Origin: Cephalotus follicularis
Lineage: Eukaryota; Streptophyta; Magnoliopsida; Oxalidales; Cephalotaceae
NCBI GenBank assembly: GCA_001972305.1
Contig: BDDD01000901.1
Location: forward strand, 372,001-436,000
Direction of reading: 5' to 3'
DNA: 64,000 nt
A model generated the notes under the pieces. That model had not been told where the DNA came from, did not search any database, and saw only the letters and a program-made list of their open reading frames with translations. Positions 1,227-42,483 of this stretch are shown piece after piece (the stretch's first letter is position 1; each line of letters opens with the position of its first letter). The translations under genes were made by a program, and so were the position numbers.

Positions 1227-1510
1227 TTAAGCGTTGACGCTTTACCTAGAAGCATCACCGCTTAGCGCAGCTAATACTTGGAATTCATATGAATCCGATC
1301 AAAACGTTGGCGCTTTGATGTTAAGCATCATCACATAACCTAGCTTCGTTTTGGTGCAATGCGCTATCGACACTTGCTAAGCATGGATACAAGGCGCTGA
1401 CATGCAAAGCGTCGCTGCTTAGATTAACTGTCGCCGCATAGTACACCTTTGATAGAATTGGATTTAAGACCCAAAGCGTCGCCGCTTAGTACGAAGGCGC
1501 CGCCGCTTAA
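1227..1510. repeat. Phased dyad array, AAGCGTCGACGCTT type
   Basis: Imperfect 16-bp dyads such as TAAGCGTTGACGCTTT followed by GAAGCATCACCGCTTA, and AAAGCGTCGCCGCTTA followed by AAGGCGCCGCCGCTTA. In three readable pairs the gap between the 16-bp units is 5 bp, giving 21 bp between centres. Many copies show TG or CA in place of CG, as expected for deamination of methylated CpG. Confidence 0.7.
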
Positions 1511-7319: not shown

Positions 7320-7324
7320 CATCT

Positions 7325-8746
7325 TGAATATACTACAGGGGGGGGTGAATTGTAGTATTAACTAATTTTATTTACTTTTTTTAATTTAATCAAATTTAAG
7401 CAATGAACACAAATTAAATATGCAATCCACAATAAACAAATAAAGTAATTTGCAGAGAAAGGGTTAGAGAGATGCAAACGGATTTTATAGTGGTTCGGCA
7501 AAAGTCGTGCCTACGTCCACTTTCCCAAGGTCCTCCTTGAGTTTCCACTAGTGTTCCACCAGAACACAATCTCCGAATATCTTTACGGTGGCTATTCGGT
7601 GCACCTTACAAATTTTTGTGATTGACCTCAATCACAAGGGTTCACTCCCCTTTCTTCACTTTCGGGTTCACTCCCCTAAGTGTTGATTACAAAAAATGAT
7701 AAGTGTTTTTATGTAACCTCTCTAAGGTTTGATTTGGCTATTTTGATTACAAGAAGTATTTTACTCTCAAAATAGATGAATAAAGCTTGATCATGCTTTG
7801 ATATAAAAAATCTGGATTTTTCTCTTGATTTTTGCTTGAATGATCTTCACTTGTTTTTCTAATTTCTTGTTCTTCTTGTTTTTTTTTCTTTTGCTGACTT
7901 GACTTAATAGAATTTTTGTGTGGACCTTGGGAGTAGTTGCATTCAGCCTTGAGGCTTGTCCTTTTGTCTTGGGAAGTGTAACTTCTGTCTTGGAAGTTGT
8001 TATCACTTCAAACGATGCATTAAAACTTCTGTCAGTAACCAGCGCGACAAAGCGTTGCCACTTAGATGTCTGTTGGATATTTGAATTTTGAAGTTTTGCT
8101 CCAAGCGCTGAAGGTCTTGATCTTGGTGTCGACTGAGTGTCATAAAGCGCTGACGCTTTCTTTTGAGCATCGCCGCTTAGCACATTTCTATTGGCTTCAT
8201 ACATCCCTAGAATTAACCGTTGATGTAGACTTCTTAACCGCTGACGCCTTGTCTTCAAAGCGCTGACGCTTTATTCTGAGCGTTGCCGCTTTGTTCAATT
8301 TAATTTTCCTTCACACATCTCTGGTTTTAACCGCTGATAACTCCCCCTTAACTATTGACACCTTGGATCAAAGCGCTGACGCTTTCTTTTGAGCGCCACC
8401 GCTTAGTGCACTTTGATTGGCATTGGACAACACTAGTTTTAACCGCTGATATGAGGTGCTAAATCGCTGGCGCCTTGCTTCAAAGCACTAACGCTTTATT
8501 TAGGGCGTCGATGGTTTGGGCTTTTTCTCCTTTGCTCCAAATGCTTCAACTGTTGACACTTTTCTCTTGGGCGTCGAAGGTCTCACAAAGCGCTGACGGT
8601 TTCATTGTGACCGTCGATGCTTAAATTTATATCTGTAATTTTCTGTTTTGAGTTTGCAACTTTTATCTTTAACTTGCACAACAAGAAACTTTGTTAAATA
8701 CAAATATGTTATCATGAAAGCATGGATTGAGACATAAATGTCAACA
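7325..8746 (-). mobile_element. 3' LTR of the Sirevirus-like element
   Basis: 1422 bp, TG...CA ended, clearly matching the 5' LTR at 19765-21191 along its length with scattered substitutions and small indels. It is bordered on the left by the target duplication CATCT and on the right by the polypurine tract. The dyad array covers 8047-8623. Confidence 0.9.
8047..8623. repeat. Phased dyad array in 3' LTR
   Basis: Repeated pairs such as AAAGCGCTGACGCTTT, 5 bp, GAGCGTTGCCGCTTTG. The centre-to-centre distance within pairs is 21 bp in every pair I aligned by eye. The 5' LTR carries the matching array at 20512-21069, and differences between the two are mostly CG to TG or CA. Confidence 0.85.
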
Positions 8747-8993
8747 ATCTCCCCATTTTTTATGATGAAAAAATTTGCTACATTTTAAACAAAATTATAC
8801 AAGTTAAAAGAACATAATAAGAATGCATAAGTTAAACATAGCATATAACTCAAAACTCCCCCTTAATCCTTTAACTCCCCCTTAGTGTGACAAGGGTATT
8901 GTTTTAGCTTTGTCATTGTTTTTAGCTTTGTCATTCTTCCTATATTGTCTTCCTTTCAATCTCCCATTCTTCCCATTTTCTCCCCCTTTTTGT
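8747..8993 (-). other. Polypurine tract and extra PPT-like copies
   Basis: On the minus strand AAAAAATGGGGAGAT directly precedes the 3' LTR start TGTTGACA. Further AAGGGGGAG-type tracts lie at about 8855-8865, 8874-8884 and 8979-8993 (AACAAAAAGGGGGAGA). Multiple PPTs ahead of the 3' LTR are an established hallmark of Sireviruses. Only the tract at the LTR edge is needed for plus-strand priming. Confidence 0.75.
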
Positions 8994-9405: not shown

Positions 9406-10556
9406 TCATTCTTCTCTTTGAGCCTCTTCATTTTCTTCGCTTGAGGATGCTGTGATAAGGCATTCATCGCCAACCATTTCTTTCCGACCAAGCCTTCTCA
9501 CAATCCTCTTTTGCCTTCTTATAAGTGTTTGAACCTCAACCTTTATTTCTTTGACATTTTGAATGAACTCTTCAAGCAAATTTCTTGACAAATTTGGTTC
9601 AGGATTATTCTGAGGCACTTTAGCTTCTTCTCCTTGAACTTCATCCCCTTCTTCTTCTCCACCTTCTTCAACCATTCTATTCGAGTCCTCCTCTCTAGGG
9701 ATCCAAGTCCCTAGCCCCTTATGCTTCTTAAACCCCATTCTACCTAGGGTCCCTTTTCCTAACCTATCTGTACTCTGGAGGGAATGATGCATCTCTCCAC
9801 TTAGATCAACTTCAAAATACATGAGGATTTTTGTGATTATGTTACTATACACTAGCCTAGCATTTTCTCTATCGTGAATTGCTAGCTTATGTTTCAATAT
9901 CAGTTGTGGCACACAAATTTTTTGACCCGTTATTATATGGAACATTGTAAATGCTTCCATATGGGTTATCTCGTCAAAACCACCGACTTTAGTTAGTATA
10001 TGTGTAGCTACCACACGGTGTAAAAACCTATAGTGAAGACTTAGGTTTCTTGAATACATTCGCTGCACAACTTGTGCGTTTTCGCCAAAAAGCAATCGTA
10101 CACATTCCTCCCTATCAAAATTATCATCTACTGGCCAGCCTCTTTGGTTCCAAGCCCTAGTGCCATGATAAGGAATTTCTAAAATGGAGGATAATAAGTC
10201 AAAACTCAAATCAAAACTCCTATTCTTTACTTTAAGTTCTAATTCCCCATCAAAGTTGACAAGCATTTTGACATAAAATTCTTTTATCAACTCAGGATAA
10301 CAGGGCAAATTTAGGGAGAACAGAGGTTCTAAACCTTAGGCATTTAGCCATCCTACAATGGGGAAACCCTCACTATTGCAAAAATCAAAATCTAAAGTAG
10401 TATTTTCCTGTCAAAATAAGCCTCAGGATACCTTATTGCCAGCGGAATCTCCTATGGTGATGATGAGTCAACAATTCCTCTTCTCTTCTTGCGCCCAATA
10501 CTTTTCCTCTTTCTGCTGGGACCTTCTCCAGCCTCAATGTTCTTAGTTCTAGGCAT
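9406..10556 (-). pseudogene. Extra ORF between pol and 3' LTR (plant-transposon-protein-like)
   Basis: An ORF in sense orientation with the element, separate from gag-pol. From an ATG at 10556 the N-terminus is basic (PSRKRKSIGRKKRRG), a likely nuclear-localisation signal. A stop and a frameshift follow within about 150 bp, after which 300 codons (10308-9406) are open. The body resembles the 'putative plant transposon protein' domain seen in many plant retrotransposons (motifs CYPELIKEFYVKML and AFTMFHIITGQKICVPQLI). That match is from memory and needs a profile search. The C-terminus is acidic (EEGGEEEGDEV), then helical and basic. It occupies the slot where Sireviruses can carry an envelope-like gene, but I see no membrane segment, so an envelope role is not supported. 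Function unknown. Confidence 0.6.
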
Positions 10557-10701: not shown

Positions 10702-10886
10702 AAAGCGTCGACTCTTTTATTTAAAGCGGTGTCGCTTTGTGGAATTTTAAATTTTGAGCCCTAACTTTTAGTGTTAAAGCATTGACGCTTTTAATTCAGG
10801 CGTCGGCGCTTTGCATATTTTGCAAAACTCTATTTATAAGTGCAGTGTTAAGCGTTGAAGCTTACTTTCCAAGCATCGGCGCTTTG
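10702..10886 (-). promoter_or_regulatory. Dyad array and TATA box upstream of the extra ORF
   Basis: Three dyad pairs of the LTR type (for example AAAGCATTGACGCTTT, 5 bp, then a dyad ending GGCGCTTT), each pair again 21 bp centre to centre. A TATAAATA box lies on the minus strand at 10838-10831, within the array, about 275 bp upstream of the ATG at 10556. The block lies between the RNase H stop (10993) and the extra ORF. This suggests a promoter for the ORF separate from the LTR. Promoter activity is inferred. Confidence 0.5.
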
Positions 10887-17889: not shown

Positions 17890-18237
17890 AATATTTTACT
17901 TGTAAAAGCAAGAGGTGGAAACATGTCCTAGTTTACCACAATTATTACAAGATACATTTATTTTTCTATTTTGCATAATAACTCTTTTATGAAAACAAGA
18001 GAATGATGTATGTTAGAGTTTACCACAATGGTTACAAGGATTATTTACAATTTTCTTGTTCATGGCATTTTTCTTGTGAAAGCAAGCAGATGATATATGT
18101 CCATATTTACCACAATAATTACAAGAGTTAAAATTGTTTCTCTTAATCATGGCATTTGTTTTATGATAACACAATGAAGATATATGCCCTATCTTACCAC
18201 AATATTCACAAGTAACTTTCAAAACTTTCTTCTTAAA
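17890..18237 (-). repeat. Four 87-bp tandem units, each a CCHC knuckle
   Basis: The shared plus-strand string TTACCACAAT recurs with TACC at 18195, 18108, 18021 and 17934, exactly 87 bp apart. Each unit codes a C-X2-C-X4-H-X4-C knuckle of the form CNYCGKxGHISSxC followed by a basic linker. The gag-only Sirevirus at 34741-36444 has one such C-terminal knuckle only. Confidence 0.85.
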
Positions 18238-19703
18238 AGAGACTTTTTCTACTTTATTCTTTTCTATCATTTCTTTCCTTTCAAAGAAATTTTGATAATG
18301 TTTTACATTATTCATCTCTTCATAACCTAGTCCGGCCTTATCAAATACACACATTTGCATTCCTAAAAGATTTTCTAACTTTTCACTACTACTAGAGAAC
18401 TTAGAAAAGGCTTTCTTTAGGGCTTCTACTTCAACCTTAAGATTTTTATTTTCTTTTTCTAAGTGAGCTACTTCATTTTCTAGAAATTCTATTTCTATAT
18501 CCTTAGAGTTGCTTTCCTTAGTCAAATCAATCGTTTTTAGTTCATAATTTTCATTCGTCAAAGTTTTAACCTTTTTCATTAGAGAAGCAATCATAGAGTT
18601 ATATTTTTCACACATAATAATAAGTTCATCGTAAGTTACCTCTTCACTTTCCTCCTCTTCTTCTTCCTCGAAGGCCATCAATGCTAGTTGAGCAACTTGT
18701 TCCCGAGTATCCTCATTTGAGCTTGATTCGTCGCTATCATCCCAAGTAGCGACTATTGCTTTCTTCTTCTTTATGAACTCCTTCTTCTTTAGTTGGGGGC
18801 AATCACTCTTGTAATGCCCCGGTTTGTTGCATTCGTAACATGCGACTTCTTCCTTTTTGCTTGACTCTCCCTTTTGATGAAATTTCTTGCTTGATTTTCC
18901 ACCAAACTTCTTTTTGTTGGCAAGGAACTTTTTGAACTTTCTTGTGAAGAAAGCAAGGTCTTCATCATCATCATCGGAGTCATCAATTTCGGATGATTTT
19001 AGGGCTACCACCTTTTTCTTCTTTTTCTCCTTCTCTTCATCATCGACTCTCTTTTGCATAGATAGTTCATGGGTCATTAGTGACCCTAGTAGATCCTCCA
19101 AGGGAATGATGCTTAAATTATTTGCCTCTTCGATTGCGGTGACCTTGGACAACCATGATCTAGGCAAGCACCTGAGAATCTTTCTTACCAATTCACTGTT
19201 AGAATAAGTTTTATCTAACGATTGCAAAGCATTAATAATATTTGTAAATCTTATGAACATAGATTTAATGTCCTCGTCTTCATTCATTGAGAACAATTCA
19301 TATTCGTGAACTAACATACTAATTTTAGCATCTTTTACTTGGTTCGTTCCTTCGTAGGTGACTTCGAGTCTATCCCACATTTCTTTAGCAGAATTGCAAG
19401 ATGAAACTCTATTAAACTCACTAGAGTTTATGGCACAAATAATTATATGCTTAGATTTTGCATTCATTTGTATTCTTCTCCTATCATTATCATCATATGT
19501 ATTCCTAGGCTTAGGAAGAACATCCCCATTTTCACTCCTAATAGTAGGAAGATTTAGACCGTCAATAATGACATCCCACAAATTATAATATAGGGATGTA
19601 TAAAGATTGTCAATTTTGCCTTTCAATGGCTATAATTGTTTCCATCAAAAAATGGGGGTTTTGAGATGTTTTGACTCTCTCCGTTGTTCATGTTCATTGA
19701 CAT
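18013..19703 (-). pseudogene. Sirevirus-like gag with expanded zinc knuckles
   Basis: The likely start is ATG at 19703 (MSMNMNNGES). A stop and a frameshift occur before residue 45, after which 537 codons are open (19626-18013). Order: UBN2-type capsid region with SNSELVRKILRCLPRSW at about residues 140-160, an acidic linker, a CCHC knuckle CYECNKPGHYKSDC at about 262-275, a coiled coil at about 350-430, the lineage-typical CVFDKAGLGYEEM, and C-terminal knuckles such as CEYCGKIGHISSLC and CNYCGKYGHISSAC. Two more knuckle units continue past the stop to about 17900. The knuckle units repeat exactly every 87 bp (29 codons). The product would be the nucleocapsid protein. Confidence 0.85.
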
Positions 19704-19750: not shown

Positions 19751-19762
19751 TCTCTGATACCA
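19751..19762 (-). other. Primer-binding site of the Sirevirus-like element
   Basis: The minus strand reads TGGTATCAGAGA two bases from the 5' LTR, matching the initiator-methionine tRNA 3' end used by most plant Copia elements (TGGTATCAGAGC). Confidence 0.85.
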
Positions 19763-19764
19763 AT

Positions 19765-21191
19765 TGAATATACTACAAGGGGGGGTGAATTGTAGTATTA
19801 ACTAATTTTATTTACTTTTTCGAATTTAATCAAATTTAAGCAATGAACACAAATTAAATATGCAATCAACAATAAACAAATAAAGTAATTTGCAAAGAAA
19901 GGGTTAGAGAGATGCAAACTGATTTTATAGTGGTTCAGCAAAAGTCGTGCCTACGTCCACTTTCCCAAGGTCCTATTTGAGTTTACACTAGTGTTCCACC
20001 AGAACACAATCTCCGAATATCTTTACGGAGGCTATTCAGTGCACCTTACAAATTTCTGTGATTGACCTCAATCACAAGGGTTCACTCACCTTTCTTCACT
20101 TTAGGGTTCACTCCCCTAAGTGTTGATTACAAAAAATGATAAGTGTTTTTATGTAACCTCTCTAAGGTTTAATTTGGCTATTTTGATTACAATAAGTAGT
20201 TTACTCTCAAAATAGATGAATAAAGCTTGATCTTGCTTTGATATAAAAATTATGGATTTTTTCTCTTGATTTTTGCTTGAATGATCTTCACTTGTTTTTC
20301 TAATTTCTTGTTCTTCTTGTTTTTTTTTTTGGCTGACTTGACTTAATAGACTTTTTGTGTGGACCTTGGGAGTAGTTGTATTTAGCCTTGAGGCTTGTTC
20401 CTTTTATCTTGGGAAGTGTAACTTCAGTCTTGGAAGTTGTTCTATCAGTCTTGAAAGTTGTTCCCACTTCAAACGATGCATTAAAACTGCTGTCAGTAAT
20501 TGTCCCCGCGTGTCAAAGCATCGCCGCTTAGATGTCCATTGGATATTTGAATTTTTGAAGTTTTGCTCCAAGTGCTGAAGGTCTTGATCTCTATGTCAAC
20601 TGAGTGTCACAAAGCGTTGACGCTTTCTTTTTAGCGTCGCCGCTTAGCACTTTTAATTGTTTTCATACATCCCTGGAATTAACCGCTGACACCTTGTCTT
20701 CAAAGCACTGACGCTTTATTCTGAGCATCGCCGATTTGTTCAATTTAATTTCCCTTCACACATCTCTCGTTTTAACCGTTGATAACTCCCCCTTAACTGT
20801 TGACGCCTTGGATCAAAGCGCTGACGCTTTCTTCTGAGTTTCGCCGCTTAGTGCACTTTGATTGGCATTGGACAACACTATTTTTAACCACTGATATGAG
20901 GTGCTAAACCGATGGCGCCTGGCTTCAAAGCGTTGACGCTTTATTTAGGGCGTTGATGGTTTGGGATTTTTCTCCTTTGCTCCAAATGTTTCAACTGTTG
21001 ACGCTTTTCTCTTGGGCGTCGAAGGTCTCACAAAGCGCTGACGGTTTCATTGTGACCGTCGACGCTTAGACATGTATCTGTAATTTTCTGTTTTGACTTT
21101 GCAAGTTTTATCTTTAACTTTCACAATAAGAAACTTTGTTAAATACAAATATGTTATCATCAAAATATGGATTGAGATATAAATGCCAACA
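19765..21191 (-). mobile_element. 5' LTR of the Sirevirus-like element
   Basis: 1427 bp. On the minus strand it starts TGTTGGCAT and ends TATATTCA. It is followed on the right by the CATCT duplication (21192-21196) and on the left by the PBS. It is similar along its length to 7325-8746. The dyad array is at 20512-21069. Confidence 0.9.
20512..21069. repeat. Phased dyad array in 5' LTR
   Basis: Pairs such as AAAGCGTTGACGCTTT, 5 bp, TAGCGTCGCCGCTTAG, and AAAGCGCTGACGGTTT, 5 bp, TGACCGTCGACGCTTA. All six pairs I aligned have centres 21 bp apart. On the minus strand (element sense) the array lies in the first part of the LTR, where U3 is expected. Confidence 0.85.
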
Positions 21192-21196
21192 CATCT

Positions 21197-22540: not shown

Positions 22541-25158
22541 TGTGACAACCCGTCCCTCGGGATAGCCACCTCGGACGAACAGCCCGGCAGGAAGGAGGAA
22601 TTTCCCATCTCCTCTAAGCCAAAAGCGCCATGCAAAACACGCCCAAAACAGCGCCAAAACGCAAGACAGAGAAGAAGCAAACCAGAAATGGCATAACTGT
22701 AAATAATCCATACATTTAAAACCATTTCAAAACACACCGTTTAACTAAAGGGACATAACAGCCACTGCCCAAATGCACCGTTCCACTAAAGGAACGTGCC
22801 AGGGGAGGGAGCCAGAGCAGAGAATGCAACACTACGTCTCGCCAGGGGTCCCAAGAAGGGGATGCCAACCTCACACAACACAAAACGACATACACCAACC
22901 AGACCTGCATTTCCACCCTAAGACACGCCTTCCCCGAATGATCCATCCTCGGGCATGTCCTCACTGGACGACTGGCCACGGACATGTCCTCCCCGGGCAT
23001 GTCCACCCCGGGCATGACCTCCCCGGGCATGCCATCCCCGGGCATACCATCCCCGGGCAACACGTTCTCCTCGGACGTCTCCTTGGACAACATGTTCTCC
23101 TCGGACAGAGCCCGACGACATAAGCCAAACCACAACATAAACCATTCCAGCACTAACCCTGAGGTCAGGACATGAACTCCACAGGTTGACCCCCCACCCC
23201 GGGGAGATCCCCCAACCTGCCCGACGTCGGGTAACCTTCTCGATAACAACAGAAAAACGTAACATAATGTTTCAAATAAAAACACAATTTCTCATCATTT
23301 AAACACAAAAAATCATCAAGAGAACACATCATATTAACATTTCAAAAGAATATATATCAAGTTCACAAAATATCATTCCCTGTCCACAAGCCAGGGACTC
23401 ATACAAAAGAATAACATATCCTCCCCAGGCCGGGGTTTATACAACAAAAGAATAAACGCATATGCCCCCATGAATGCATGCAAGGATGAGCTCATGAAGC
23501 CAGTAGCTCTGCACGTCCCCCGCAGACTACCTTGTCAACTCACAAGACTGCCCTAGCAGCCACAGCAGCTTCCTCTGCAAAACAACTGGGAGGGGATTAG
23601 TCCAAATGACTAGTGAGCAAGAACCAGCATTCTCCAGAGCATCCACAACCACTGGACGCACAAGGAAAAGAAATATATATAAACAAGCCCCACTGGGCAA
23701 AACAGAACAAGTCAGGGGATAAACAAAGGAACACAAACTCAGCAATATCACAAGGCTCCACTCCTCAGAGTCTGCCAAAGGAAAAGAGAGTCAATATCAA
23801 TAAGTAGAGGATTCCAACAAAAGATAACATCACAAGTAAAACAACTATGCCCAAGATAAACAAGAGAAGAGGAACAACACCACAATATCCCATGGTCAAC
23901 CACCATACCAGGCAAAACATACACTTCAGCCGCCATACCAGGCAAAACATACACGTCAGCAGCCATACCAGGCAAAACACACACATCTATCCATGCCTCG
24001 CCTGCTAGAATCTATCCGGACCTCGTCCCCTAGTATCTATCCGGGCCTTGCCTGCTATCCACCATAATATCCGTGGTCTGCCGCCATACCAGGTCAAACA
24101 CATACTCACACACCACCTATCCGGGCCTTGCCCGCTAGAATCTATCCGGACCTCGTCCTCTAGTATCTATCCGGGCTTTGCCCGCTAACCCCGGCCAAAT
24201 GGAAAGGAAAGGAGCCCTCCCGTACACTCAACGCAGCATACCATCATAGACAATAGTACACTGCAGATCCAGGTGTGGATCCCGGGGGCAGTTCACCAAA
24301 GCATCCTATCATAGACAATGAGAATACTAAGGAGAGTTGGTTCTCGGACGTACCCTTTACCATCGACCGAACCCATGAATCCCATCCGCACATCCCGGTG
24401 CATTGCATTCGCACATCCCAGTGCATCCCACGTAACAGAGGAACCAAGAACCATCCGAGCTCTCAAGCTCTACCAAGAACAGTATAACAACATGAACAAG
24501 GGTAACAGTGATCCAAGTCCCATAGAAAACGTTAAAACAAAGGATACCAACAGGCACACGAGATATCAAGTAAAAGAAGGAAGAGAATGTCCCACTCACA
24601 AATCGCCTCAAGTCACCGTCGACCAACCCCAAGATGCTCAGTCACAACAACCGGTTCCTCGTCTGCAAACTAACACATATCAGATCAAGAAGAAGACATA
24701 ACACATGCATGAACAGAAAACACAACCAGCCAAACCAGGCTATCATCCCCCACCTCGATCCCAGTGCAATGTGCCACCACACAACACAAACCAGGGAAGA
24801 GGAGAGCTCACCTTCATAGCTCAAAGCAAAGAGAGCAACCAAAACGCTCACGGAAGAAGGGAAAGAAGAAGAAGAAGAAACCAGCTCTTTCTCTCACTTC
24901 TCACTTCCCTCTCTCAAGTTGAACTCCACTTACCAAGAAGGCTCTGCCAGCCCACTTACCAACTCCCTAAAACTTATCCTAACGCAACATTGGGAACAAC
25001 AAGTTTCCTCAAGAAGCTATCCATTAAAACAATATAATAACCCAACTTAACCATGTCCACATGTTTAAATTAACTTACCACAATTTCCACTTAAGTCCTT
25101 TCCATGTCAAACAAGGCCTTAAGATAAAATCCTCTAAAAACAGGTACGGGGTATTACA
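22541..25158. mobile_element. Second solo LTR of the 3180-5852 family
   Basis: The unit starts TGTGACAACCCGTCCCTC and ends ACGGGGTATTACA, 2618 bp, alignable over its whole length with 3180-5852 in the same orientation. Flanks are CCATT and TTATT, not a clean duplication, so one flank may have mutated or been rearranged. It has the CCCGGG 15-bp array near 22980-23060 and the same downstream blocks. No internal coding domain. Confidence 0.8.
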
Positions 25159-25231
25159 TTATTCACCTGGCAGAGCACAACCCCTGTACAAAAACAGTTT
25201 GTGCACAGAAAATTCCGCACAACGCAGATTT

Positions 25232-28096: not shown

Positions 28097-30493
28097 TGTA
28101 ACACTCCGAAACAACCTCTATTTGCTTTAGCATGTTTTTTCATTACATGGCAGGGTATTTAAGGATTTTATGACATGATTATGCATATAGATATGTATGG
28201 CATGAGAGAATTTTAATACTCATATGAAGGTATTGTATGTCGGTTTAGAGTATTTATATGCATGAGGTAGGAGTTAACGAGAAACTTATAAATAGATAGC
28301 TAATACAGATTTCGCTCATTTTTCTTTTCCCTTCTCTCTCTAAGATCCCGTTTCCCTCACTTTCTCTACAATAACTATGCCAAAACTCACCCAAATGGAC
28401 TATATGACTTTTGGAATCGAAGGGTAAGGGTAATACATTGATTGAGGACTTGATTGGCACAAGATTGGAGCTCCAATAGCAAATAACTTGAGTCTTTTCT
28501 CCCATTTCTAACCCTAGAGACCAAGAACAAGCTCCAATCTTAAGTAGAAACCTTCACTACCTAAATATGCTATGATTAACACATGTATGCACATATATGA
28601 ACTAATTGCATGAATTGAAATTAAATAATTTTTTATGTTTGAGAGTTAGGGTTTGTAATGGTTAAAGGGGGTTTTAGACCTAAAATGGAAATGGACGGAT
28701 TAAATGGATTGAAAACGGTTTTTATGGCATAGAAATGGCTAATAGGACTTGTAATGAAATGGAATTGAATTGGTTTTAAGAAAAGAGATGGATTTGCAAA
28801 GATTTTTTTGGCAAGAACCCTAGTTCTTCCGAGCTCTGCGTCGACGGTTATGCTTAAAGCGTCACCGCTTAACTTGATTTTAAAACAGAATTTGTTACAA
28901 ATTGATAGCGCTTTGTCTTCTTAGCAGCACTCAGTTTAAGCATCGCTGCTTAATCCATAAGTGTCTCCGCTTAGCCTTGTTTTTAAAAAATTTGACACAG
29001 CACTGTCTCAAAGCGCTGAACTTGAGGCTTAACTGTCGACGCTTGTGCACTAAGTGTCACTGCTTAAGGTCAAGGCGTCATCGCTTTGGCAGGCAGTTTT
29101 TTCCCAAATGTTTTCAAGGCATGATTTTCAAAGGCTTTTCTCATTGGCCCTTTTCTAGGCTAGTGTATGGTATAGACTGGGCTTTATTCCCAAGTTTTTC
29201 ACGATAATGGGTAAGAAAAAGAGTAGAGTATGGTCTATAGATGTGTTCACCGTATAGTGAACTGTAACTCCTAGTCAGGTACATGGTGTCGATCAACAGT
29301 CGATTGATCTCTCTACTAGGGTTACACACGGTATATGATTGGTTGAGCTCTTATTGGCTTACCAATAGGCAACCAATTCTAGTAAAATTCTTATCGGTTC
29401 ATCGATCGGTGACTAAATGTCTAATCCTAGAGATTGTGCGCATTCAAGGGGATTTACACACATGTATGGATAGGATGCATGGATCTAGTGGCCGGTTGAG
29501 CTTCTACTGATCTACTGGTAGGTAATTGGGTCTAGTGAACTCCTATCGGTCTACCGTTAGGCACTAGATATCTAGACCCTAGCACGAGCCACCTTCAGGT
29601 GGTAGTTCTAGACTTACTATGATGGATGGTATGTTGCATGCTACAACATTACGGACGTACGGATGTGTGGATCTATAATTAGTTGAGCTCCTACAGGTTT
29701 ACCTATAGGCAACTAGGTCTAGTGAGGTCTTATCGATATACTAGTAAGCACTAGATGTTATTACCCTTGAGCTTATGTCAGGTTGGACTTACGGATGATG
29801 GTATGTTTAGATTGATTGCTTATATATATGTATTGGTATGGAATAGTGTATTTATATGTTTAGTTGATCTCCTGATTGCCTGATAGATGTATGGATAATA
29901 GTGTATGATTAGGGTAACGGTCTACATATATAAGCTGGTATGGGATGATTTTATATATATAGATTCGTTAACAACAATTGTACATGCATATTGTCATGAC
30001 ATGCATTGATAAACTGTGATATTTGTATATATCATCAGCATATGGGTTGTGTTTCAACGGAAACCTTTGGGTTGACCCATCCTTCGGGATGGGGCATCTA
30101 TATTTGTTCAGAGATAGATCTAGAGCTAGTGGCATTGATCATAGGCATAAGGATCAGTGATGGCATGAACACATAGATCTTGGATGCAAGGATGCTGGAT
30201 TTTCTCTTATGAGTATTCATGTTTTAGTCTAAGGATCTTTATCCTAAAGACTTGTATGGATTTGATTATCTGATAAAGACGAATTGTAAGGTTTTATATA
30301 TGGATTGTAAAAGATGATATACATAGTACTGTATGGTAAGAATGTTTACGGATATGACAGGTTCTATTTATGAATGGTTTAATGTTTAAGATGTTTTGAA
30401 TGGATGCATGCACATTTTAGATAAGTTTTAAGTATGTATGGATTTCCTTTGACAGAATAAAGTTACTAGACCCAACATAAGGGATTTAATGGA
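28097..30493 (+). mobile_element. 5' LTR (main part) of the Gypsy gag-only element
   Basis: It aligns with 38782-41153. A TATA box, TATAAATA, is at 28287-28294, equivalent to 38972-38979 in the 3' LTR, so transcription should start near 28320. The dyad array at 28834-29098 lies about 550 bp downstream of it. A second dyad family with consensus CCTATTGGTCTACCGATAGG recurs between 29340 and 29760. The last 32 bp of the LTR (33277-33308) are separated by a nested LTR. Confidence 0.85.
28834..29098. repeat. Phased dyad array, AAGCGTCGACGCTT type, in Gypsy LTR
   Basis: Runs such as TAACTGTCGACGCTTG, TAAGTGTCACTGCTTA and AAGGCGTCATCGCTTT, each 16 bp with 5-bp gaps, so three successive centres are 21 bp apart. 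Other pairs here keep the same step. The matching array of the 3' LTR is at 39521-39778. Confidence 0.8.
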
Positions 30494-33276
30494 CCCCCGG
30501 ACGACGGGAGTTGTCACAGGACACATATCATACAGAACCTATCATATCTGATCATAACATACTAATCAAATCATTACTTTATTAGCCAAAACAGCCAAAA
30601 ACGTGGCAGTCTTATCAAGTGAAACATTAAAAACTTAACAAATAATCGTTTTGTGAAATACTTCAAACATAATTAAGTTCCAAATTCAAAACATAAAACA
30701 TAATCATAAGTATCATTGTTATGACCACTAAACATGAAACACAATGATCTCACTCCTAGGGATCCAATACATAAGGTGGTCTCTCTCATTCACACTTTCC
30801 CCCGCTGCTCCTGTAAACCTGCCGCATGGAAAACAAAAACGCGGCTGAGCAAACCTCAGTACGGATAAGGGAAATAAAAACAGTAAACGATAATTTAAAA
30901 ACAGTAATATTTCAATAAACTTCGTAGCGGAAATCTTAAACAGTTAAAACAGATACATAATCGTAAAATCACATTTGTACTGTCATAAAATCCATATAAT
31001 TTTTGGAACAATTACGAAACATTTCAAAACATTATTTTCGATTCACAAATCATAAATCACAAATCATACGTTATACTGAGCCACATACATATCACATAAT
31101 ATAATTTTGGCAAGGGAGGCGCTAATTCCACATGCTTACTAGAATTGAAGTATACGGCACTACACAAGTCAATTCTCACATATCATATATCAGATCAGCC
31201 ATCTGATCACATATTTGATCATTCACTAGATCACATATCATAAACTAGAATCGATTCATACGCCTCTATCATACATAGCGGATCCATAAATCCACCTCAT
31301 GGGATTTATTCATACACTCAGAGACGCCGTAGTCTAATCACACCGCTACGGAAGTGTCACGTCCCCGTGCCAGGCCCACGACGTGCCTATGGTACGCCCC
31401 ATAGGTGGGTACAATACTCAATATTCATTTCAAAAATATTGATTTATCAAAATCAATTTAAAACACATAAAATATGCTTTCACAAAACATATCAGAAAAC
31501 CGCTCACAACGATATCATATCATACGTTTCATAACATATCGTATCATTTCATATCATATGTATAAAGTCGGAATCATTTAAAAATGTCAAACCAACTTTA
31601 ATTTTGAAACATATCAAAACCATAAAACATTATCGATTTCATAAACGAAGAAGCATATCAAAACTGTTTCAGTTCGAAATATCAGATAGCCAAGGAACAG
31701 AAAATCCGTACCTTATGCGCTCACAAAGTACTTACGGATAGACGATTTAAACGGAATCCACTTGAAGCACAACAATCTAAAAAGGCATTCAAATCATACG
31801 TATAAGAGTCTAAGACACATCAGAAGCATTAAACAGACTCTTAACAGTGTTTAGAAAAGACTCAGATCGATTCGGGGATCAAACGAATCAAAACAGTTGA
31901 AAACAGTACATTTCTGGGCAAAACAGTCGACTATAACAGAGCACCAGCCGACTGGGGAAGCTTGGTAGTCGACTATTCATATGGTCCAGTCGACTGCTCA
32001 AACTAGAATGCAGGCATTCGACTGGATCATACATCTAGTCGACTACTCAACCTAAGGCAGCCGACTGTGTTCATATGGCAGTCGGCTGCTCATCCAATCC
32101 ATCCGATTGTCCACAGGAACAGCCGACTGTTCTGGACTACAGAACAGTAGGAACTTTGACAATTTGATACTAAAAATTGTTCAAATGATTATAACAATGA
32201 ACCTGAGACACCTGGACACAAACATAAGATCATATATGACATTTATATGACTCAGGAACACAGAATTGACAAGGAAATAATTTGACAGTGGCTTATCTTT
32301 AAGAGAAAGTAAGAAGACATGCATATATATATGTCCTGACTCTATCCATTGTCAATTACAGATGTTATAAACCCAGTTTATGACATAACTATGTGTATAA
32401 AACACGTGTACAATCCTATTAACACAATAACAGAACATATTAACATGGGAATTGAAACCAGAAGACATTAAGAGCATAAAACTCAAATTACAGAAAGAGA
32501 CGAATTAACTGACCTGCAGTGGTATATAAAGGACACAGAAAACGTATGAGAAACACCACAATCCTATGATCACAAGGCTGAACACGGAAACAAAACAAAA
32601 GAGAAGGAAAACGAATATACAAACTCAAAGCTTGTCCAAAGAAGTATAACTAAAACAGAACAATCAAGGGCTGAGTTCACAAGGCACCAACCTGATTGTT
32701 AATGACATAAACGTACAAAGAACACGACATATTCTTTCTTGCAAAATTTCAGCAGAAGCTTACAAGAGAGGAGAGAATAGCATATGACAAAGGCAATATC
32801 ACTCTTTAAATGGAATTAGAAGACCAAATCTGCCCACATAAGGAAAAAGAGAGGATTTCCAGGGAAAGAGAAAGGAAAGAATGAGATTTGTTGTGTGATA
32901 TTGATGAAGGAGAGAAGGAATTCGGGAGAAGAAGGAGAAAGAAATAGGAAGAAAGAAAGAAAAAGGAAATAAAAGAAAAAGGAAAAGAAAAGAAGTTAAA
33001 GAATTAAAATAAAGGAATTAAAGGAATTAAGGGATTTTAAAAATAAAAATAAAAGTGATTTATTTTTAATAAGATAATTTCGATTATAAGAAAATAATTT
33101 AAAAGCCCAACCCAACATAACATTACGTACCCAAAATTAGACTGGTATCAGTCAGCCCAAATCACATAAGCCCAAAACAAAGGGCAACCGGACTTTAAAA
33201 TTAAACACAATTAAAAAGCCCGAACACAAACACATAAAATCCGTAAAACACATTTACGAACGAGCAGGGTAATACA
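30494..33276 (-). mobile_element. Nested LTR in the Gypsy 5' LTR, inverted relative to 43305-46129
   Basis: Its minus strand aligns over about 2.8 kb with the plus strand of 43305-46129. On the minus strand it starts near TGTATTACCCTGC and ends GACGTCCGGGGG in variant form, lacking the terminal GTTACA. The left junction shares GGACCCCC with the host LTR, and about 20 bp of host LTR plus the LTR tip seem deleted there, so no target duplication remains. No coding sequence, PBS or PPT: a solo LTR. Confidence 0.8.
31924..32129. repeat. Phased dyad array, CAGTCGACTG type (copy in minus LTR)
   Basis: Ten 10-bp dyads (CAGTCGACTG, CAGCCGACTG, TAGTCGACTA and variants). Successive centre distances read 21, 21, 21, 28, 21, 22, 21, 21 and 20 bp. 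The inverted relative at 44427-44632 has the same series in reverse order. Confidence 0.9.
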
Positions 33277-33308
33277 TCATGGACCCCCTATGAGATTTGG
33301 ATGTCACA

Positions 33309-33322
33309 GTTGGTATCAAAGT
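33309..33322 (+). other. Primer-binding site of the Gypsy gag-only element
   Basis: GTTGGTATCAAAGTGG begins directly after the LTR end TGTCACA. It resembles the initiator-Met type PBS with two mismatches. Confidence 0.7.
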
Positions 33323-33751
33323 GGTATTGGCCTACTAGTTAAGTCTGACTGATGGTTATAGATTGACTGAATGGCCATGCTTGATTTATGTGTTTACAGT
33401 TGTCGATGCTTATGAATTGGATATATGTGCATTGATTAATGGTGGATGTTTATATAAGGTAGAGAAATGAAAAATAGAGGAAGAAGAGGTCGAAGAGGAA
33501 GGATAGGTGTACAGAGAGATGGTTTGGTCGTTAAAGGTGAATCGGTACATGGGAGTCAAGCACTGACGTTTGATGATGTTGGCTTCTTGCCACCCCTTTA
33601 ATTGTGTTAAAGATTATGTTTCGATGATTAACAAACAAGTAACTATCAAGAAACACTTGTATGCATGTTTTTGATATATTACAAACACATATACTCACTT
33701 GATTTCATGTTGAAAGTGTTGCAAAGGTATAAATTACAGATACAGGCAATC

Positions 33752-34111
33752 TAGCCGACTGCCCAAGGATGAACAGCCGACTGGACCTTCAAAGAAACCC
33801 AGACCTGGAACTTGCACAACAGCCAGCCGACTGCCTCAGGGATCCAGTCAACTGCCGTGGCAATCCAGTCGACTGCCAAGGCTTCCAGCCGACTGCCAAG
33901 AGATGCACAATTCAACCAGTAGCTTTGGAAATCAAAGTTCTAGCCCAGACAGCCGACTGGAATAGAGCATCAGTCGACTGCCAAGGCATCCAGTCGACTG
34001 CCCAGTCCATCCAGCCGACTGTCACTTCTCCAAAGGCTATATTTACAAATGCACAACATTTTCCCAGCCGACTGCAAGCCCAGCCGACTGCAAGGAAAAT
34101 CCAGTCGACTG
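33752..34111. repeat. Phased dyad array, CAGTCGACTG type, in Sirevirus U3
   Basis: About thirteen dyads of CAGTCGACTG or CAGCCGACTG. In the compact runs the centre distances are 20, 21 or 22 bp (for example 21, 21, 20 and 21, 20, 21), with one of 16 and two longer gaps. The last dyad centre is about 49 bp from the TATA box. Confidence 0.9.
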
Positions 34112-34154
34112 GATTTGGTCTGATTGGTTAAAAATAGATCCGTTGGAGGATCTC

Positions 34155-34161
34155 TATAAAA
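34155..34161 (+). promoter_or_regulatory. TATA box of the gag-only Sirevirus LTR
   Basis: TATAAAA in the context CTCTATAAAAGG, following the dyad array. This part of the LTR is deleted in the 3' LTR. Confidence 0.6.
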
Positions 34162-34740
34162 GGAAGAATGTGGAATTTTTACACAAGAGACATATCAAGA
34201 GATAACAAGCAAATACACATTCCTTACAAGCAACACTAGAGCTATTCTACATCTTTCAAATCAAAATCCAAAGCTTGTAACTAAGCTAGCACTTTCATAT
34301 CCAACCTTTGAGAGGTTATTGTAAACACAACACAATTCACTTTTATCATTCTTTGTATTTGAGGGGAGTGAACCCTTGTAAGGTGTTTGTTTGATTTGCA
34401 CCCGGAACCCAAATCAAGTGTAAGGTGGTTTGCTTTGATTTGCACCCGTAAGCCGAAAATCAAAGGTTGCTAGTGGATTCTAGTGGAAACTCAAGAGGTC
34501 TTAAGAAAGTGGACGTAGGCACGGATTTGCCGAACCACTATAAATTTGTTTGCACTCCTTCTATCCCTTATCTCTTTACTTGTCATTGTTTAATTGTTTA
34601 TTGTGTGCTTGTTTAGATTCATTGTCTTAAGTTGTATTTTCCGCATACAAAGTTACTAGTTAAAAGTTGCCATATAGTTTTTTCAGTTGGTATCAGAGAG
34701 GTTATCTCATAATTCTTAATTGTTAGAGATATAAAGATCC

Positions 34741-37394: not shown

Positions 37395-38156
37395 GATGAA
37401 AATGCTCCACCTCTTGGATCTGATCACACTACTTGGAGAAATATGTGTGCAACTATGTCAAGGATGAATGAACAGTTGATGAGAAGTAATGCAAGAGAGG
37501 AATCTCGTCAAGGGGGTTATAGTGTATTGTCAAAGTTTATGAAGTTACATCTTCTAGCTTTCTATGGAGAGATGGATCCCATAGCAGCTGATCAGTGGCT
37601 CCTTCACATGGGTAAGATTTTTTCAATTATGGAGAGTACATATGAGCAGAAGCTCTCCTTATTAGCTTACATGCTTCATGGAGATGCAGAATATTGGTGG
37701 ATGATGGTACAGGCTTCATGGGAGCTGAATGGGACATAGAGGACTTGGGATACTTTTGTGACAAAATTTAGCACTCGATTCTATCCCGAGGACATCAAAG
37801 ACAAGAAAGAGGAAGAGTTTTCCAACTTGACCCAGGGAGACATGAAAGTTGCACAGTATGAAAGTAAGTTTATGGAGCTATCTCGGTCGACTCCATACTT
37901 AGAGCTAGGTGAGGCAAGGAAAACGAAGAAGTTTCTAAGGGGTTTAAAGATAGAGTTGAGGGGTCAGTTGATTACACAAGGTTTGAAGACTATGGCTGAT
38001 GTTGCATCCAAAGACAGACAGTTAGAAGACATATCAGAGGAATTTAGGAAACTAAGCATTCCGACAGGCAGTGGACCAGCACAGGTCTTGTGGCAAAGTG
38101 ACCAGAGTGGCTCTCCTAGTGGAAAGTCAATGAGACCGATAGTAGATGCTCACTAA

Positions 38157-38781: not shown

Positions 38782-41153
38782 TGTAACGCCCCGAATCAAC
38801 CCCTATTTGCGTTAACATGTTTTTGCATTATAGGGCAAGGTATTTAGGGATTTTATGAAATAATTATGCATATGGATATGTATGATATGGGAGTATTTTA
38901 ATACTCATATGAAGGTATTGTATGTCTGTGTACAATATTTATATGTATGGGAGTAGAGTTAGCGAGAAACCTATAAATAGAGAGCTAAAACACGTTTCGC
39001 TCATTTCTCTCTTCCTTTTCTCTCTCAAAGATCCCGTTTCTCTCACTTATCTCTACAATAACTCTACCAAAACTCATGAAAATGGACTATATGACACAGG
39101 GAATCGAAGGGTAAGGGTAATATATTGATTGAGGACTTGATTGGCACAAGATTGGAGCTCCATAAGCCAAGAACTTGAGTTCTTTCTGTGATTTCTGACC
39201 CTAGAGATCAAGAACAAGATCCAATCTTAGGTAAAAACCTTATCTACCTAAATATGCTATGATTAACACATGTATGCAGATATATGAACTGATTGCACGG
39301 ATTAAAATTGAATGATTTGGTATGTTAGAGAGTTAGGGTTTATAATGGTTAAAGAGGGTTTTAGACCTAAAATGGAAATGAACTAATTAAATGGATTGAA
39401 AATGGTTTTTATGGCAAAGAAATAGCTAATAGGACTTGAAATGAAGTTGAATTGAATTGGTTTTAAGAAAAGAGATGGATTTGCAAAGATTTTTTTGGCA
39501 AGAACCCTAGTTCTACCGAGCTAAGTGTTGATGGTCATGATTAAAGCATCACCACTTAGCTTGCTTTTAAAACAAAATTTGTTACAAACCGATAGCGCTT
39601 TGTCTTCCTAGCAGTGCTCATTCTAAGTGTCACCGCATAGTCCATAAGCTTGGCCGCTTAGCCCATTTTTTTCCAAAATTGGACACATCACTAGCTCAAA
39701 GCACTGACGCTTGAGGCTTAACTGTCGATACTTGTGCGCTAAACATCGCCGCTTAAGGTCAAGGCATTGCCGCTTTGACCGGCAGTTTTTTTGCAAATTT
39801 CTAAAGGTTTTTCTCATGGGCTATTTTCTAGGCTCCTGTATGGTATAGACTGGGTTTTATTCCTGGGTTTTTCATGATGACAGTGTAAGAAAATTGGTAT
39901 AGTATGCTCTATTGATGTGTTTACTGTAGAATGAACTGTAACTCCTAGTCAGGTACGTGGTATCGATCTACAGTTGACTAAGCCCTCTACTAGGGTTACA
40001 CGCGGTATATGATTAGTTGACCTCCCATTACCTTACCAATAGGCAACCAATTCTAGCCGACTTTCTATCGGCGCCTTCATGGGGATTTAGACACATGTAT
40101 GATAGGTTGTATGGATCTAATGACCGATTGAGCTCCTATTGGTCTACCGATAGGCAACTAGGTCTAGTGAGCTCCTATCGATCTACCATTAGGCGCTAGA
40201 TATCTAGACTCTAGCACATGCCACCTTTAGGTGGGAGTTCTAGACTCACTATGATGGATGGTATGTTGCATGCTACGATATGACGGACGAATGTATGGAT
40301 CTGTAACTAATTGAGATCCTATGGGTTTACCTATAGGCAACTAGTTCTAATGAGCTCTAATTGGTCTACTGGTAAGCACTAGATGTTCTTACCCTTGAGC
40401 TTTTACCAGGTTGGACTTACGAATGATGGTATCTTTAGATTAATTGCATATATATAGTATGGGACAATGTATATATATGTTTAGTTAATCTCCTGATTGT
40501 CTAATAGATGTATAGATAGGAGTGTATGATTAGGCTAATTGTTAATATGTATAAGCTAGTATGGGATGATTTATATACATAGATTCGTTAACCATAGTTG
40601 TATATGCATATTTCCATGACATGCATTGATAAACTGTGATATCAGTACATATCATCAGCATAGGAGTTGTGTTTCTACGAAAGCCTTTGGGCTGACCGAT
40701 CCTTCGAGATGGGGCATCTATGTGTGTTCAGGGATAGATAGACCCGGAGCTAGTTGTTATGGTCATGGGCATGATGATCAATGATGGCATGCACGGATGA
40801 TCTTGGGTGCAAGGATGCTAGATTTTCTATTATGAGTTTTCATGTTTTATGTTAAGGATGTTTATCTTAAAGACATTTATGGATTTGATTATGTGATAAG
40901 GACGAATTGTAAGGTTTTATATATGGATTATAAGAGATGATATGCATGCTATTGTATTGTAATAATGTTTAAGGATATGACAAGTTCTATTTATGAATTG
41001 TTTAATGTTTAAGATGTTTTGAATGGACGTAAGCATATTTTATATAAGTTTGAAGTATGTATGGATTTTCGTTGACAGAATAGACTTACTAGTACCCGAC
41101 ATAAGGGATTGAATGGATTTGGGTGACATCACGGACCCCCTACAGGTTCGGGA
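38782..41153 (+). mobile_element. 3' LTR (main part) of the Gypsy gag-only element
   Basis: It starts TGTAACGCCCCG and aligns with 28097-30493. A TATA box is at 38972-38979 and the dyad array at 39521-39778. The last bases of the LTR lie at 46423-46429 beyond the next insertion. Confidence 0.88.
39521..39778. repeat. Phased dyad array in Gypsy 3' LTR
   Basis: Equivalent of 28834-29098 with more decay. For example TAAGTGTTGATGGTCA, 5 bp, AAAGCATCACCACTTA, still with centres 21 bp apart. Most former CG steps read TG or CA. Confidence 0.75.
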
Positions 41154-41300
41154 TGTAATAACCACAATTTCAATTCATGTATTTTGTATCCAACGATGAA
41201 TAAAATATACCTTTTGAGATATTATGTTGGTTACCTTTTGAATAGAATGATGTTGGAATAAAATTTTTAGATAAAAAAACTAAAGAAATAATTTCTGGTG

Positions 41301-41429
41301 CCAAACCGCTGACGCCTAAAGTCATACCGTCGACGCTTTAAGCCCTGACATGTGCACAAAACGCACAGTTGAAGGCTGAGTTATGACGCACAAACCGTCG
41401 ACGCCAGAGAGAAGACCGTCGACGCTTTA
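41301..41429. repeat. Phased dyad pairs in solo LTR (first block)
   Basis: AAACCGCTGACGCCTA, 5 bp, ATACCGTCGACGCTTT, and AAACCGTCGACGCCAG, 5 bp, AGACCGTCGACGCTTT. Both pairs have centres exactly 21 bp apart. These are among the least decayed copies in the window. Confidence 0.85.
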
Positions 41430-42338: not shown

Positions 42339-42483
42339 AGAAGCGCCGACGCTTACACAGAAACTGTCGACGCTTTGGTGCAAAAATGCCATATTAAGGC
42401 TTAGAATGTCGACGCTTAAGTTGTGTAGTGTCAATGCCTAGTCATTAACTGTCGACGCTTACATAGAAACTATCGACGCTTTA
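42339..42483. repeat. Phased dyad pairs in solo LTR (second block)
   Basis: GAAGCGCCGACGCTTA, 5 bp, AAACTGTCGACGCTTT, and TAACTGTCGACGCTTA, 5 bp, AAACTATCGACGCTTT, each at 21 bp. A third pair is at 22 bp. Confidence 0.85.

What the first reader, a model, noticed from the sequence alone, without database searches (positions are those of the whole stretch)
20512..21069. 21-bp phased dyad arrays in LTRs, one architecture shared by Copia and Gypsy families
In this Sirevirus-like LTR, pairs of 16-bp imperfect palindromes (family AAGCGTCGACGCTT) are separated by 5 bp, so centres are 21 bp apart in every pair I aligned. The same dyad with the same 21-bp step is at 1227-1510, 8047-8623, 28834-29098, 39521-39778, 41301-41429 and 42339-42483, including three Gypsy-type LTR families whose other sequence is unrelated to the Copia LTR. 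Twenty-one bp is two helical turns, so dyads face the same side of DNA. Sireviruses are known for LTR palindrome clusters. The exact phase and the exchange between superfamilies look less described and could be a common binding platform for a host dimer or silencing factor.
Basis: partly seen in the sequence, partly recalled or inferred. Interest (0 to 1): 0.85.

Follow-up and report, generated by a model that had tools for sequence, protein, structure and literature searches.

The report
Two-turn palindrome pairs in retrotransposon LTRs
In a plant genome (most likely the pitcher plant Cephalotus), the long terminal repeats of unrelated jumping-gene families carry pairs of short palindromes whose centres mostly lie 20 or 21 bases apart, two turns of the helix, which likely lets two copies of a DNA-binding protein sit side by side and control these elements.

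Summary
The pattern is real and genome-wide. The dyad AAGCGTCGACGCTT (47 near matches in the window, 0.7 expected) comes in pairs with centres 20-21 bp apart. With steps of 11-41 bp allowed, 2012 of 2398 exact genome hits (84%) fall at 20-21. So does GTCAGCTGAC, met only as a control (125 of 166). Linkers vary, so these are not minisatellite copies. Arrays lie in both LTRs of a Sirevirus-like Copia (A), of a second Copia (RT 35% identical to A) and of a Ty3/Gypsy with gag, protease, RT, RNase H and integrase; a gag-only Gypsy has them too. Copia-Gypsy linker similarity is weak, so recent capture is unlikely; an old shared module remains possible. Corrections: in the cited LTR 3 of 5 close steps are 20; the phase holds within pairs, not between them; 'three Gypsy families' is not shown in the window. 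Sirevirus LTR palindromes are published; the fixed two-turn step, shared by different palindromes and by Gypsy, was not in my literature listings. Best mechanism: a U3 control region bound cooperatively by dimers on one DNA face. The binder is unknown.

The parts
20515..21068 (-). Class-1 dyad array (AAGCGTCGACGCTT family) in one LTR of Sirevirus-like element A; the finding given. Close steps (<=4 mismatches) 20, 20, 21, 20, 21 bp
19764..21196 (-). LTR of element A (5' LTR on the minus strand), about 90% identical to the other copy; iMet-like PBS at 19762(-), 1 mismatch
7324..8750 (-). Other LTR of element A (3' LTR)
8049..8623 (-). Class-1 dyad array in the 3' LTR of A; 113-bp higher-order repeat of dyad pairs
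10702..10885 (-). Class-1 array inside element A: three pairs, each with a 21-bp step; lies 5' (on the minus strand) of the ORF at 9406-10335, the position that the published Sirevirus palindromes take relative to ENV
9406..10335 (-). ORF in the env position of A; Pfam Transposase_32 match (not shown to be an envelope)
18013..19629 (-). Copia-type gag of element A with CCHC knuckle
28097..33308 (+). 5' LTR of gag-only Gypsy element B (start TGTAACACTCCG; end inferred from the PBS-like site at 33311, 2 mismatches; 28097-30493 repeated at 38782-41117)
28835..29087 (+). Class-1 dyad array in the Gypsy 5' LTR; steps 21, 81, 21, 72, 21, 21
31945..32129 (+). Class-2 dyads CAGYCGRCTG in the Gypsy 5' LTR; steps 42, 71, 21, 41
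33774..34111 (+). Class-2 dyad array in the LTR of nested Copia fragment B'; steps 50, 21, 21, 20, 64, 21, 20, 21, 53, 16, 21
33600..34687 (+). LTR of Copia fragment B' (PBS at 34688; Copia gag at 34735-35961); start approximate
37533..38007 (+). Ty3/Gypsy gag (Retrotrans_gag, Ty3_capsid) of element B, interrupted upstream by B'
38782..41117 (+). 3' LTR part of element B, preceded by a purine-rich tract (GGAGGGGAGGA)
39543..39776 (+). Class-1 dyad array in the 3' LTR part of element B
41303..41428 (+). Class-1 dyads C1; region matches the stretch after the LTR start of L027, a B-type gag-only Gypsy copy (host inferred)
42340..42482 (+). Class-1 dyads C2; same host inference as C1
44427..44632 (-). 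Class-2 dyads in the inverted copy of the Gypsy LTR segment (43302-46122)
1228..1509 (.). Class-1 dyad array, host element unknown

Best explanation
The arrays are pairs of palindromes with centres mostly 20-21 bp apart in the LTRs of Copia and Gypsy retrotransposons, and they likely work as an upstream control region on which two protein dimers bind side by side on the same face of the DNA and contact each other. Shown: the paired palindromes, the two-turn step, the variable linkers, the place in both LTRs of a Sirevirus-like Copia, of a second Copia and of a Gypsy, and the same step for three different palindromes. Inferred: that each palindrome is a dimer site; that the step is kept because bound dimers must face the same side; that the sites set LTR transcription (activation first, later silencing once methylated, as the CpG-transition decay of the dyads suggests); and that the module works in either orientation. 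Different families would carry different palindromes ('dialects') for different or diverged binders while the geometry stays. Its presence in two superfamilies would come from an old module transfer, or from repeated selection for the same host binder.
For: Step: 2012 of 2398 class-1 hits at 20-21 bp with 11-41 allowed; 34,367 of 48,687 class-2 pairs with 10-40 allowed; 125 of 166 for GTCAGCTGAC; an arbitrary palindrome, TGGACGTCCA, has 0 pairs and its reversal 3. Linkers: 68 distinct among 92 listed class-1 pairs; in 58 distinct pair contexts the linker resembles the following 5 bp no more than chance (26.2% against 24.9%, P 0.30). Centre spacing rather than gap is kept: class 2 is symmetric over 10 bp only (28 perfect sites, flank complementarity 0.18, 0.36, 0.14, 0.18), so its gap is 10-11 bp against 5-7 in class 1. 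Hosts: element A; Copia 2, L018 with LTR pair 93.6% identical, RT 35% identical to A; Gypsy L012/L031 with gag, RVP_2, RVT_1, RT_RNaseH, Integrase_H2C2 and LTR pair 91% identical, dyads starting 76-443 bp into the LTRs; Gypsy gag-only B. Motif-free peaks at 20-21. CpG decay: 278 of 364 substitutions at CpG positions are transitions. Published Sirevirus LTR palindromes lie in the upper half of the LTR and upstream of ENV (PMC2829016, section 9).
Against: No binding, expression, chromatin or small-RNA data. 16% of class-1 hits and 29% of class-2 pairs have other steps; of 69 listed class-2 pairs, 12 are at 27-28 bp. Distances between pairs are not helically phased. No TATA-like site lies close downstream of the array in A (next one at 1268 of 1433). 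RNA folding is stronger than shuffles in two of three arrays (z -3.62, -2.71; the cited LTR only -1.64), which leaves room for a hairpin role. Perfect palindromes in the window alone gave no clear 21-bp peak (2 pairs at 21 against 0.07 expected at best). Class 3 is small and its hosts are unknown. Genome counts are copies of families, not independent events; symmetric class-1 pairs count on both strands.
Confidence: 0.6

Rival explanations
1. RNA or single-strand hairpins: because each dyad is self-complementary, a pair folds into a stem with the linker as loop, and this hairpin (source of small RNAs, or a trigger of silencing) is what is kept, as proposed for maize Sirevirus palindromes.
For: RNA folds better than shuffles in two of three arrays (z -3.62 and -2.71). 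Maize Sirevirus palindrome regions are described as small-RNA hot spots (passages of PMC5311732, and PMC10760457).
Against: Folding is only z -1.64 in the cited LTR. Centre-to-centre distance, not loop length, is constant between class 1 (14-16-bp dyad, 5-7-bp gap) and class 2 (10-bp dyad, 10-11-bp gap); a hairpin has no evident reason to keep so narrow a step.
Confidence: 0.15
2. Minisatellite slippage: 21 bp is just the unit of a tandem repeat that spread inside LTRs, without selection on spacing.
For: Element A shows a 113-bp higher-order duplication of pairs, so local duplication does occur.
Against: Linkers do not resemble the flanks at the register a 21-bp unit predicts (P 0.30 and 0.27); linker information is 0.13 bit per base against 1.2 in the dyads; three different palindromes share the step.
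Confidence: 0.08
3. Captured module: one LTR control block moved between Copia and Gypsy elements (template switching or nested insertion) long ago, so the shared architecture is common descent that later diverged. This concerns origin and is compatible with the binding mechanism.
For: Copia L029 steps 21-93-21-71-21-21 and Gypsy L012 steps 21-(53+40)-20-71-22-19 match; unmasked, they align at 62% over 277 bp. Weak linker similarity of A to L012 and L031, z 3.2 and 3.3, 3 of 300 shuffles each, about as high as between Sirevirus-type LTRs A and L023 (z 3.3).
Against: 210 masked comparisons were made, so a few at 3 of 300 are expected by chance; other arrays have different layouts; classes 2 and 3 share only the step.
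Confidence: 0.4

Closest known systems
Sirevirus repeated motifs (RMs), Bousios et al. 2010, PMC2829016
   Same: Palindromic boxes of 10-20 bp, 8-32 per element, mostly in the upper half of the LTR and, in ENV-bearing elements, upstream of the ENV gene; a different sequence in most elements; the grape RM CGGTCGACCG shares the GTCGAC centre (section 9 read).
   Different: RMs carry a CGG-CCG core (all but Tnd-1), absent here; they are reported as Sirevirus-specific (compared there with other Ty1/copia elements), whereas here they also occur in a Gypsy and in a Copia with RT 35% identical to A; no fixed centre-to-centre step is given in the passages and the section I read.
Maize Sirevirus palindromes as small-RNA hot spots (Bousios et al. 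2016, not held; seen only through passages of PMC5311732 and PMC10760457)
   Same: Clusters of LTR palindromes in the cis-regulatory region; the same maize palindrome was also the commonest motif in Helitron structured regions, a precedent for sharing between superfamilies.
   Different: Palindrome CACCGGAC-GTCCGGTG; the reading there is RNA secondary structure, not helical phase.
HTLV-1 U3 21-bp repeats (recalled, no call)
   Same: Repeated near-palindromic sites for bZIP dimers in a U3 enhancer.
   Different: An animal retrovirus; its repeats are, as far as I recall, not direct neighbours with a 5-bp gap; sequence unrelated. Analogy only.
Tnt1 BII and Tto1 13-bp repeated LTR motifs (recalled, no call)
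   Same: Repeated activator sites in plant Copia LTRs.
   Different: Not paired palindromes with a two-turn step, as far as I recall; sequences unrelated.

Membership tests
Sirevirus (element A as host) | Copia-type gag, integrase and reverse transcriptase in Copia order | tested here: met
   Retrotran_gag_2, gag_pre-integrs, rve, RVT_2 on the minus strand in that order
Sirevirus (element A as host) | Env-like ORF between pol and the 3' LTR | tested here: inconclusive
   ORF 9406-10335 is in place, but its Pfam match is Transposase_32
Sirevirus (element A as host) | RT phylogenetic placement among Sireviruses | not tested
   No reference Sirevirus RT was at hand
Sirevirus repeated motif (RM) of Bousios 2010 | Palindromic, many copies in the upper half of the LTR | tested here: met
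   9 and 8 class-1 dyads starting 129-688 bp into the two A LTRs of about 1430 bp
Sirevirus repeated motif (RM) of Bousios 2010 | Further copies upstream of the ENV position | tested here: met
   Six dyads at 10702-10885, 5' of ORF 9406-10335; whether that ORF is an ENV is open
Sirevirus repeated motif (RM) of Bousios 2010 | CGG-CCG core (12 of 13 published elements) | tested here: not met
   AAGCGTCGACGCTT, CAGTCGACTG and GTCAGCTGAC have no CGG...CCG core. So the arrays work like RMs but are not filed as members.
Sirevirus repeated motif (RM) of Bousios 2010 | Confined to Sireviruses | tested here: not met
   Present in both LTRs of a Gypsy and of a Copia with RT 35% identical to A
Sirevirus repeated motif (RM) of Bousios 2010 | TATA box shortly after the RM cluster | tested here: inconclusive
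   Simple pattern only: in A the next TATA-like site 3' of the array is at 1268 of 1433, the array ends near 680; in Gypsy L012 at 653, the array ends near 427
Cooperative dimer platform (works like) | Centre-to-centre step near an integral number of helical turns | tested here: met
   20-21 bp in 84% of class-1 hits and 71% of class-2 pairs
Cooperative dimer platform (works like) | A protein that binds the dyad as a dimer | not testable with these tools
   Needs EMSA or DAP-seq
21-bp minisatellite | Linker and flank are copies of one unit | tested here: not met
   26.2% identity against 24.9% by chance, P 0.30, 58 contexts

The most novel reading that the evidence does not exclude
A geometry code independent of letters: in one plant genome, LTR promoters of Copia and Gypsy elements converge on pairs of palindromes two helical turns apart, each family spelling its own palindrome (at least three dialects, over 36,000 exact pairs at that step), read by a fast-diversifying family of dimeric host or element proteins that share one quaternary arrangement: an LTR-binding arms race that keeps the docking distance and changes the letters.
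Probability: 0.25. Interest if true: 0.88.

Novelty: new variant of a known kind. Interest (0 to 1): 0.72.

Why it matters
LTR palindromes of Sireviruses were described in 2010, and I know of no protein shown to read them. A two-turn step that survives when the palindrome changes and when the host element changes superfamily turns them into a testable binding geometry: one spacing series in a gel shift or reporter would tell. If a host factor reads it, one regulator may govern many retrotransposons of a 1.6-Gb genome, and the dialects would show how elements and host co-evolve at the LTR promoter. The rule also gives a motif-free way to look for LTR control regions in other plants.

Tried and rejected
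Perfect-palindrome autocorrelation in the window alone had too little power, because most dyads are imperfect. Helical phase across whole arrays was tested and not found. Perfect palindromes without a GTCGAC core gave no 20-21 peak in the fetched stretches, yet GTCAGCTGAC did genome-wide, so the rule is not limited to GTCGAC cores; only five palindromes got an answer genome-wide (the two dyads, GTCAGCTGAC, TGGACGTCCA and its reversal). No match of a class-1 pair pattern in viral contigs. No tRNA genes and no Rfam families at gathering score in the window. L024 and L029 looked like Gypsy hosts from a nearby gag, but their arrays share the LTR start of the Sirevirus-type family, so I did not count them as Gypsy. 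Candidate binders (WRKY, bZIP, AP2/ERF and others) were considered from memory only and dropped: none seemed to explain a 14-16-bp and a 10-bp palindrome together. Two more palindromes planned as controls did not complete: CGGTCGACCG and GACGATCGTC.

Full report
What the window is. The window lies in a 1.58-Gb assembly (G000:C901:372001-436000). For the gag at 18013-19629(-), the 47 best of 120 listed protein matches are from Cephalotus follicularis wherever the cut-off name column still shows a species (best hit 73% identity over 98%), so the host is most likely that pitcher plant (taxonomy); this is inferred from one protein search. The region is a nest of LTR retrotransposons. Element A (minus strand) has LTRs at 7324-8750 and 19764-21196, about 90% identical, a PBS-like site at 19762(-), and Copia gag, integrase and RT. 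Element B (plus strand) has a Ty3/Gypsy gag at 37533-38007, LTR copies at 28097-30493 and 38782-41117 (83%) that start TGTAAC, and a PBS-like site at 33311, which puts the end of its 5' LTR near 33308 (inferred). A Copia fragment B' (LTR about 33600-34687, PBS 34688, gag 34735-35961) sits inside B.

The observation. AAGCGTCGACGCTT with up to 3 mismatches occurs 47 times, 0.71 expected. Of 55 neighbour distances below 150 bp, 27 are 20 or 21 bp (20 at 21, 7 at 20). In the 20 pairs at 21 bp, the dyads carry 1.2 bits per base and the linker 0.13 (dyads were chosen by the consensus, linkers were not). An array at 10702-10885 and a second palindrome, CAGYCGACTG, were missed. Motif-free tests agree: 12 of 22 near-palindrome pairs in the window are at 20-21, and in the window plus the 21 long fetched stretches the palindromic 8-mers recur at 20-21 in 21 of 30 cases with non-tandem linkers (20 of those stretches had been picked by a class-1 pattern).

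Genome-wide. Class 1, exact dyad followed by an 11-base dyad end, any step from 11 to 41: 1190 + 1208 hits against 1 + 2 for the reversed pattern; 1003 + 1009 of them at 20-21, 84% where a flat spread gives 2 of 31 (6.5%). Perfectly symmetric pairs count on both strands, so these are hits, not distinct loci. Class 2, CAGTCGACTG twice, steps 10-40: 48,687 pairs, 34,367 at 20-21. The reversed control of class 2, GTCAGCTGAC, is itself a palindrome; it has 166 pairs, 125 of them at 20-21, with varied linkers, so this control turned out to be a third class. An arbitrary palindrome, TGGACGTCCA, has 0 pairs and its reversal 3. Two further palindromes could not be run. Against strictness: of 69 listed class-2 pairs, 40 are at 21, 12 at 20, 5 at 19 or 22, and 12 at 27-28.

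What kind of constraint. Not a minisatellite: in 58 distinct contexts of 21-bp pairs the 5-bp linker matches the following 5 bp at 26.2% (chance 24.9%, P 0.30) and the preceding 5 bp at 26.2% (chance 24.8%, P 0.27). Among 92 listed class-1 pairs there are 68 distinct linkers. Not loop length: class 2 is symmetric over 10 bp only (flank complementarity 0.18, 0.36, 0.14, 0.18; 28 perfect sites), so the gap differs (10-11 against 5-7 bp) while the centre distance stays. Not a phase of whole arrays: distances between pairs show no significant helical period (P 0.28, 0.39 and 0.12 for three ranges, 17 contexts). The unit is a pair or trio.

Hosts. In the 20 stretches of 10 kb taken from the top of the class-1 list and the window, 43 arrays fall in 10 groups after masking dyads. 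(a) Sirevirus-type LTRs: L019, L023 (8248), L024, L026 (7868) and L029 (4984) share 60-140 bp with the LTR start of A. (b) A second Copia family: L018 has LTRs 687-1618 and 7470-8384, 93.6% identical, with arrays in both and a further array in the leader after the PBS-like site; L016, L020 and L025 show the same LTR-plus-leader layout around a PBS-like site, with RTs 85-90% identical to L018 and each other and 34-36% identical to A; L022 shows the layout too, with no RT hit in the stretch. (c) Ty3/Gypsy: L012 carries gag, RVP_2, RVT_1 and RT_RNaseH on the minus strand, followed in the neighbouring stretch L031 by Integrase_H2C2 and SH3_Tf2-1 (the integrase core itself was not detected and L031 has no ORF of 150 residues, so the copy is decayed). 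L012 3609-5093 and L031 5986-7495 are its LTRs (91% over 1521 bp), beginning TGTAATGACC, the 3' one behind a purine-rich tract, with 10 dyads starting 76-413 bp and 8 starting 216-443 bp into them. (d) Gag-only Gypsy B and its relative L027, whose LTR start is followed by the stretch that in the window holds 41303-42482. L024 and L029 were first taken for Gypsy and withdrawn. So both superfamilies and two Copia lineages carry the arrays. Class 2 is likewise in a Gypsy LTR (31945-32129) and a Copia LTR (33774-34111). Hosts of class 3 were not examined.

Capture or convergence. With dyads masked, the two LTRs of one element (L012/L031, B) and two copies of one family (L018/L016) align strongly (z 74, 51, 40). 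Sirevirus-type LTRs among themselves give z 3.3-5.4. Copia against Gypsy gives at best z 3.3 (3 of 300 shuffles), in 210 tests. So a recent capture is unlikely for the arrays compared, but the test cannot see an old one. One unexplained pair, the array at 1228-1509 and the Gypsy-type C2, reaches z 4.1. The layouts of Copia L029 (21-93-21-71-21-21) and Gypsy L012 (21-93-20-71-22-19, counting one inner dyad) agree and align at 62% over 277 bp with dyads unmasked, which hints at an old common module. I raised the odds of that origin from 0.35 to 0.40 on rechecking these z values; the question stays open.

Mechanism. The most economical reading is a U3 control region of paired dimer sites, two turns apart, contacted on one face. 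Palindromes suggest dimers; the tolerance of 20 as well as 21 fits 10-10.5 bp per turn; variable linkers and changing palindromes say that neither is read as a whole. The dyads decay largely by CpG transitions (278 of 364 substitutions at CpG positions; 856 substitutions in all, 351 dyads), as expected if they become methylated. Hairpin formation remains a rival (folding z -1.64, -3.62, -2.71), and maize work ties Sirevirus palindromes to small RNAs (passages of PMC5311732 and PMC10760457). No binder is named.

What is known. Bousios et al. 2010 (PMC2829016; section 9 in full and passages elsewhere) described palindromic repeated motifs in 13 Sireviruses, in the LTR and upstream of ENV, called them Sirevirus-specific and gave a CGG-CCG core. 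Element A repeats the positions but not the core, and here the feature is not Sirevirus-specific. PMC10760457 (passages) notes one maize palindrome shared by Copia and Helitron regions. My eight answered searches (listings and starts of abstracts, three papers opened) showed no paper whose listing reports a fixed 20-21-bp step or the same arrays in Gypsy LTRs. Most subscription papers, and Bousios 2016, are not held, so priority is not settled.

Noticed in passing
window:38782-46122: The 3' LTR of Gypsy B stops at 41117 where the 5' LTR goes on into 30494-33308; the matching segment appears inverted at 46122-43302, behind a stretch (41118-43300) that in L027 follows the LTR start directly: an inversion, a modular LTR, or an assembly fault.
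   Followed up: partly
window:3180-5853 and 22541-25159: Direct repeat of 2.7 kb (81%) on both sides of element A with 25-bp tandem units (CGGGCCTCGCCCG-like): probably an older element into which A inserted, with a dyad-like repeat of another period.
   Followed up: no
L016, L018, L020, L022, L025: A Copia family with a dyad array in the LTR and a second one in the leader just after the PBS-like site.
   Followed up: partly
genome G000: CAGTCGACTG pairs (steps 10-40) number 48,687, a very large load of one palindrome pair for a 1.58-Gb genome.
   Followed up: partly
window:9406-10335: ORF in the env position of element A matches Pfam Transposase_32 ('putative plant transposon protein'); a related ORF is at L026 9032-9643.
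   Followed up: no
window:1228-1509 and 42340-42482: Two arrays with unrelated or unknown hosts whose masked linkers align better than 300 of 300 shuffles (z 4.1).
   Followed up: no
window:59437-62835: LINE-like reverse transcriptase (RVT_1, zf-RVT, weak Exo_endo_phos) on the minus strand.
   Followed up: no
window:13138-13378: 62-bp tandem repeat, 3.9 copies, 93% matches, inside element A.
   Followed up: no
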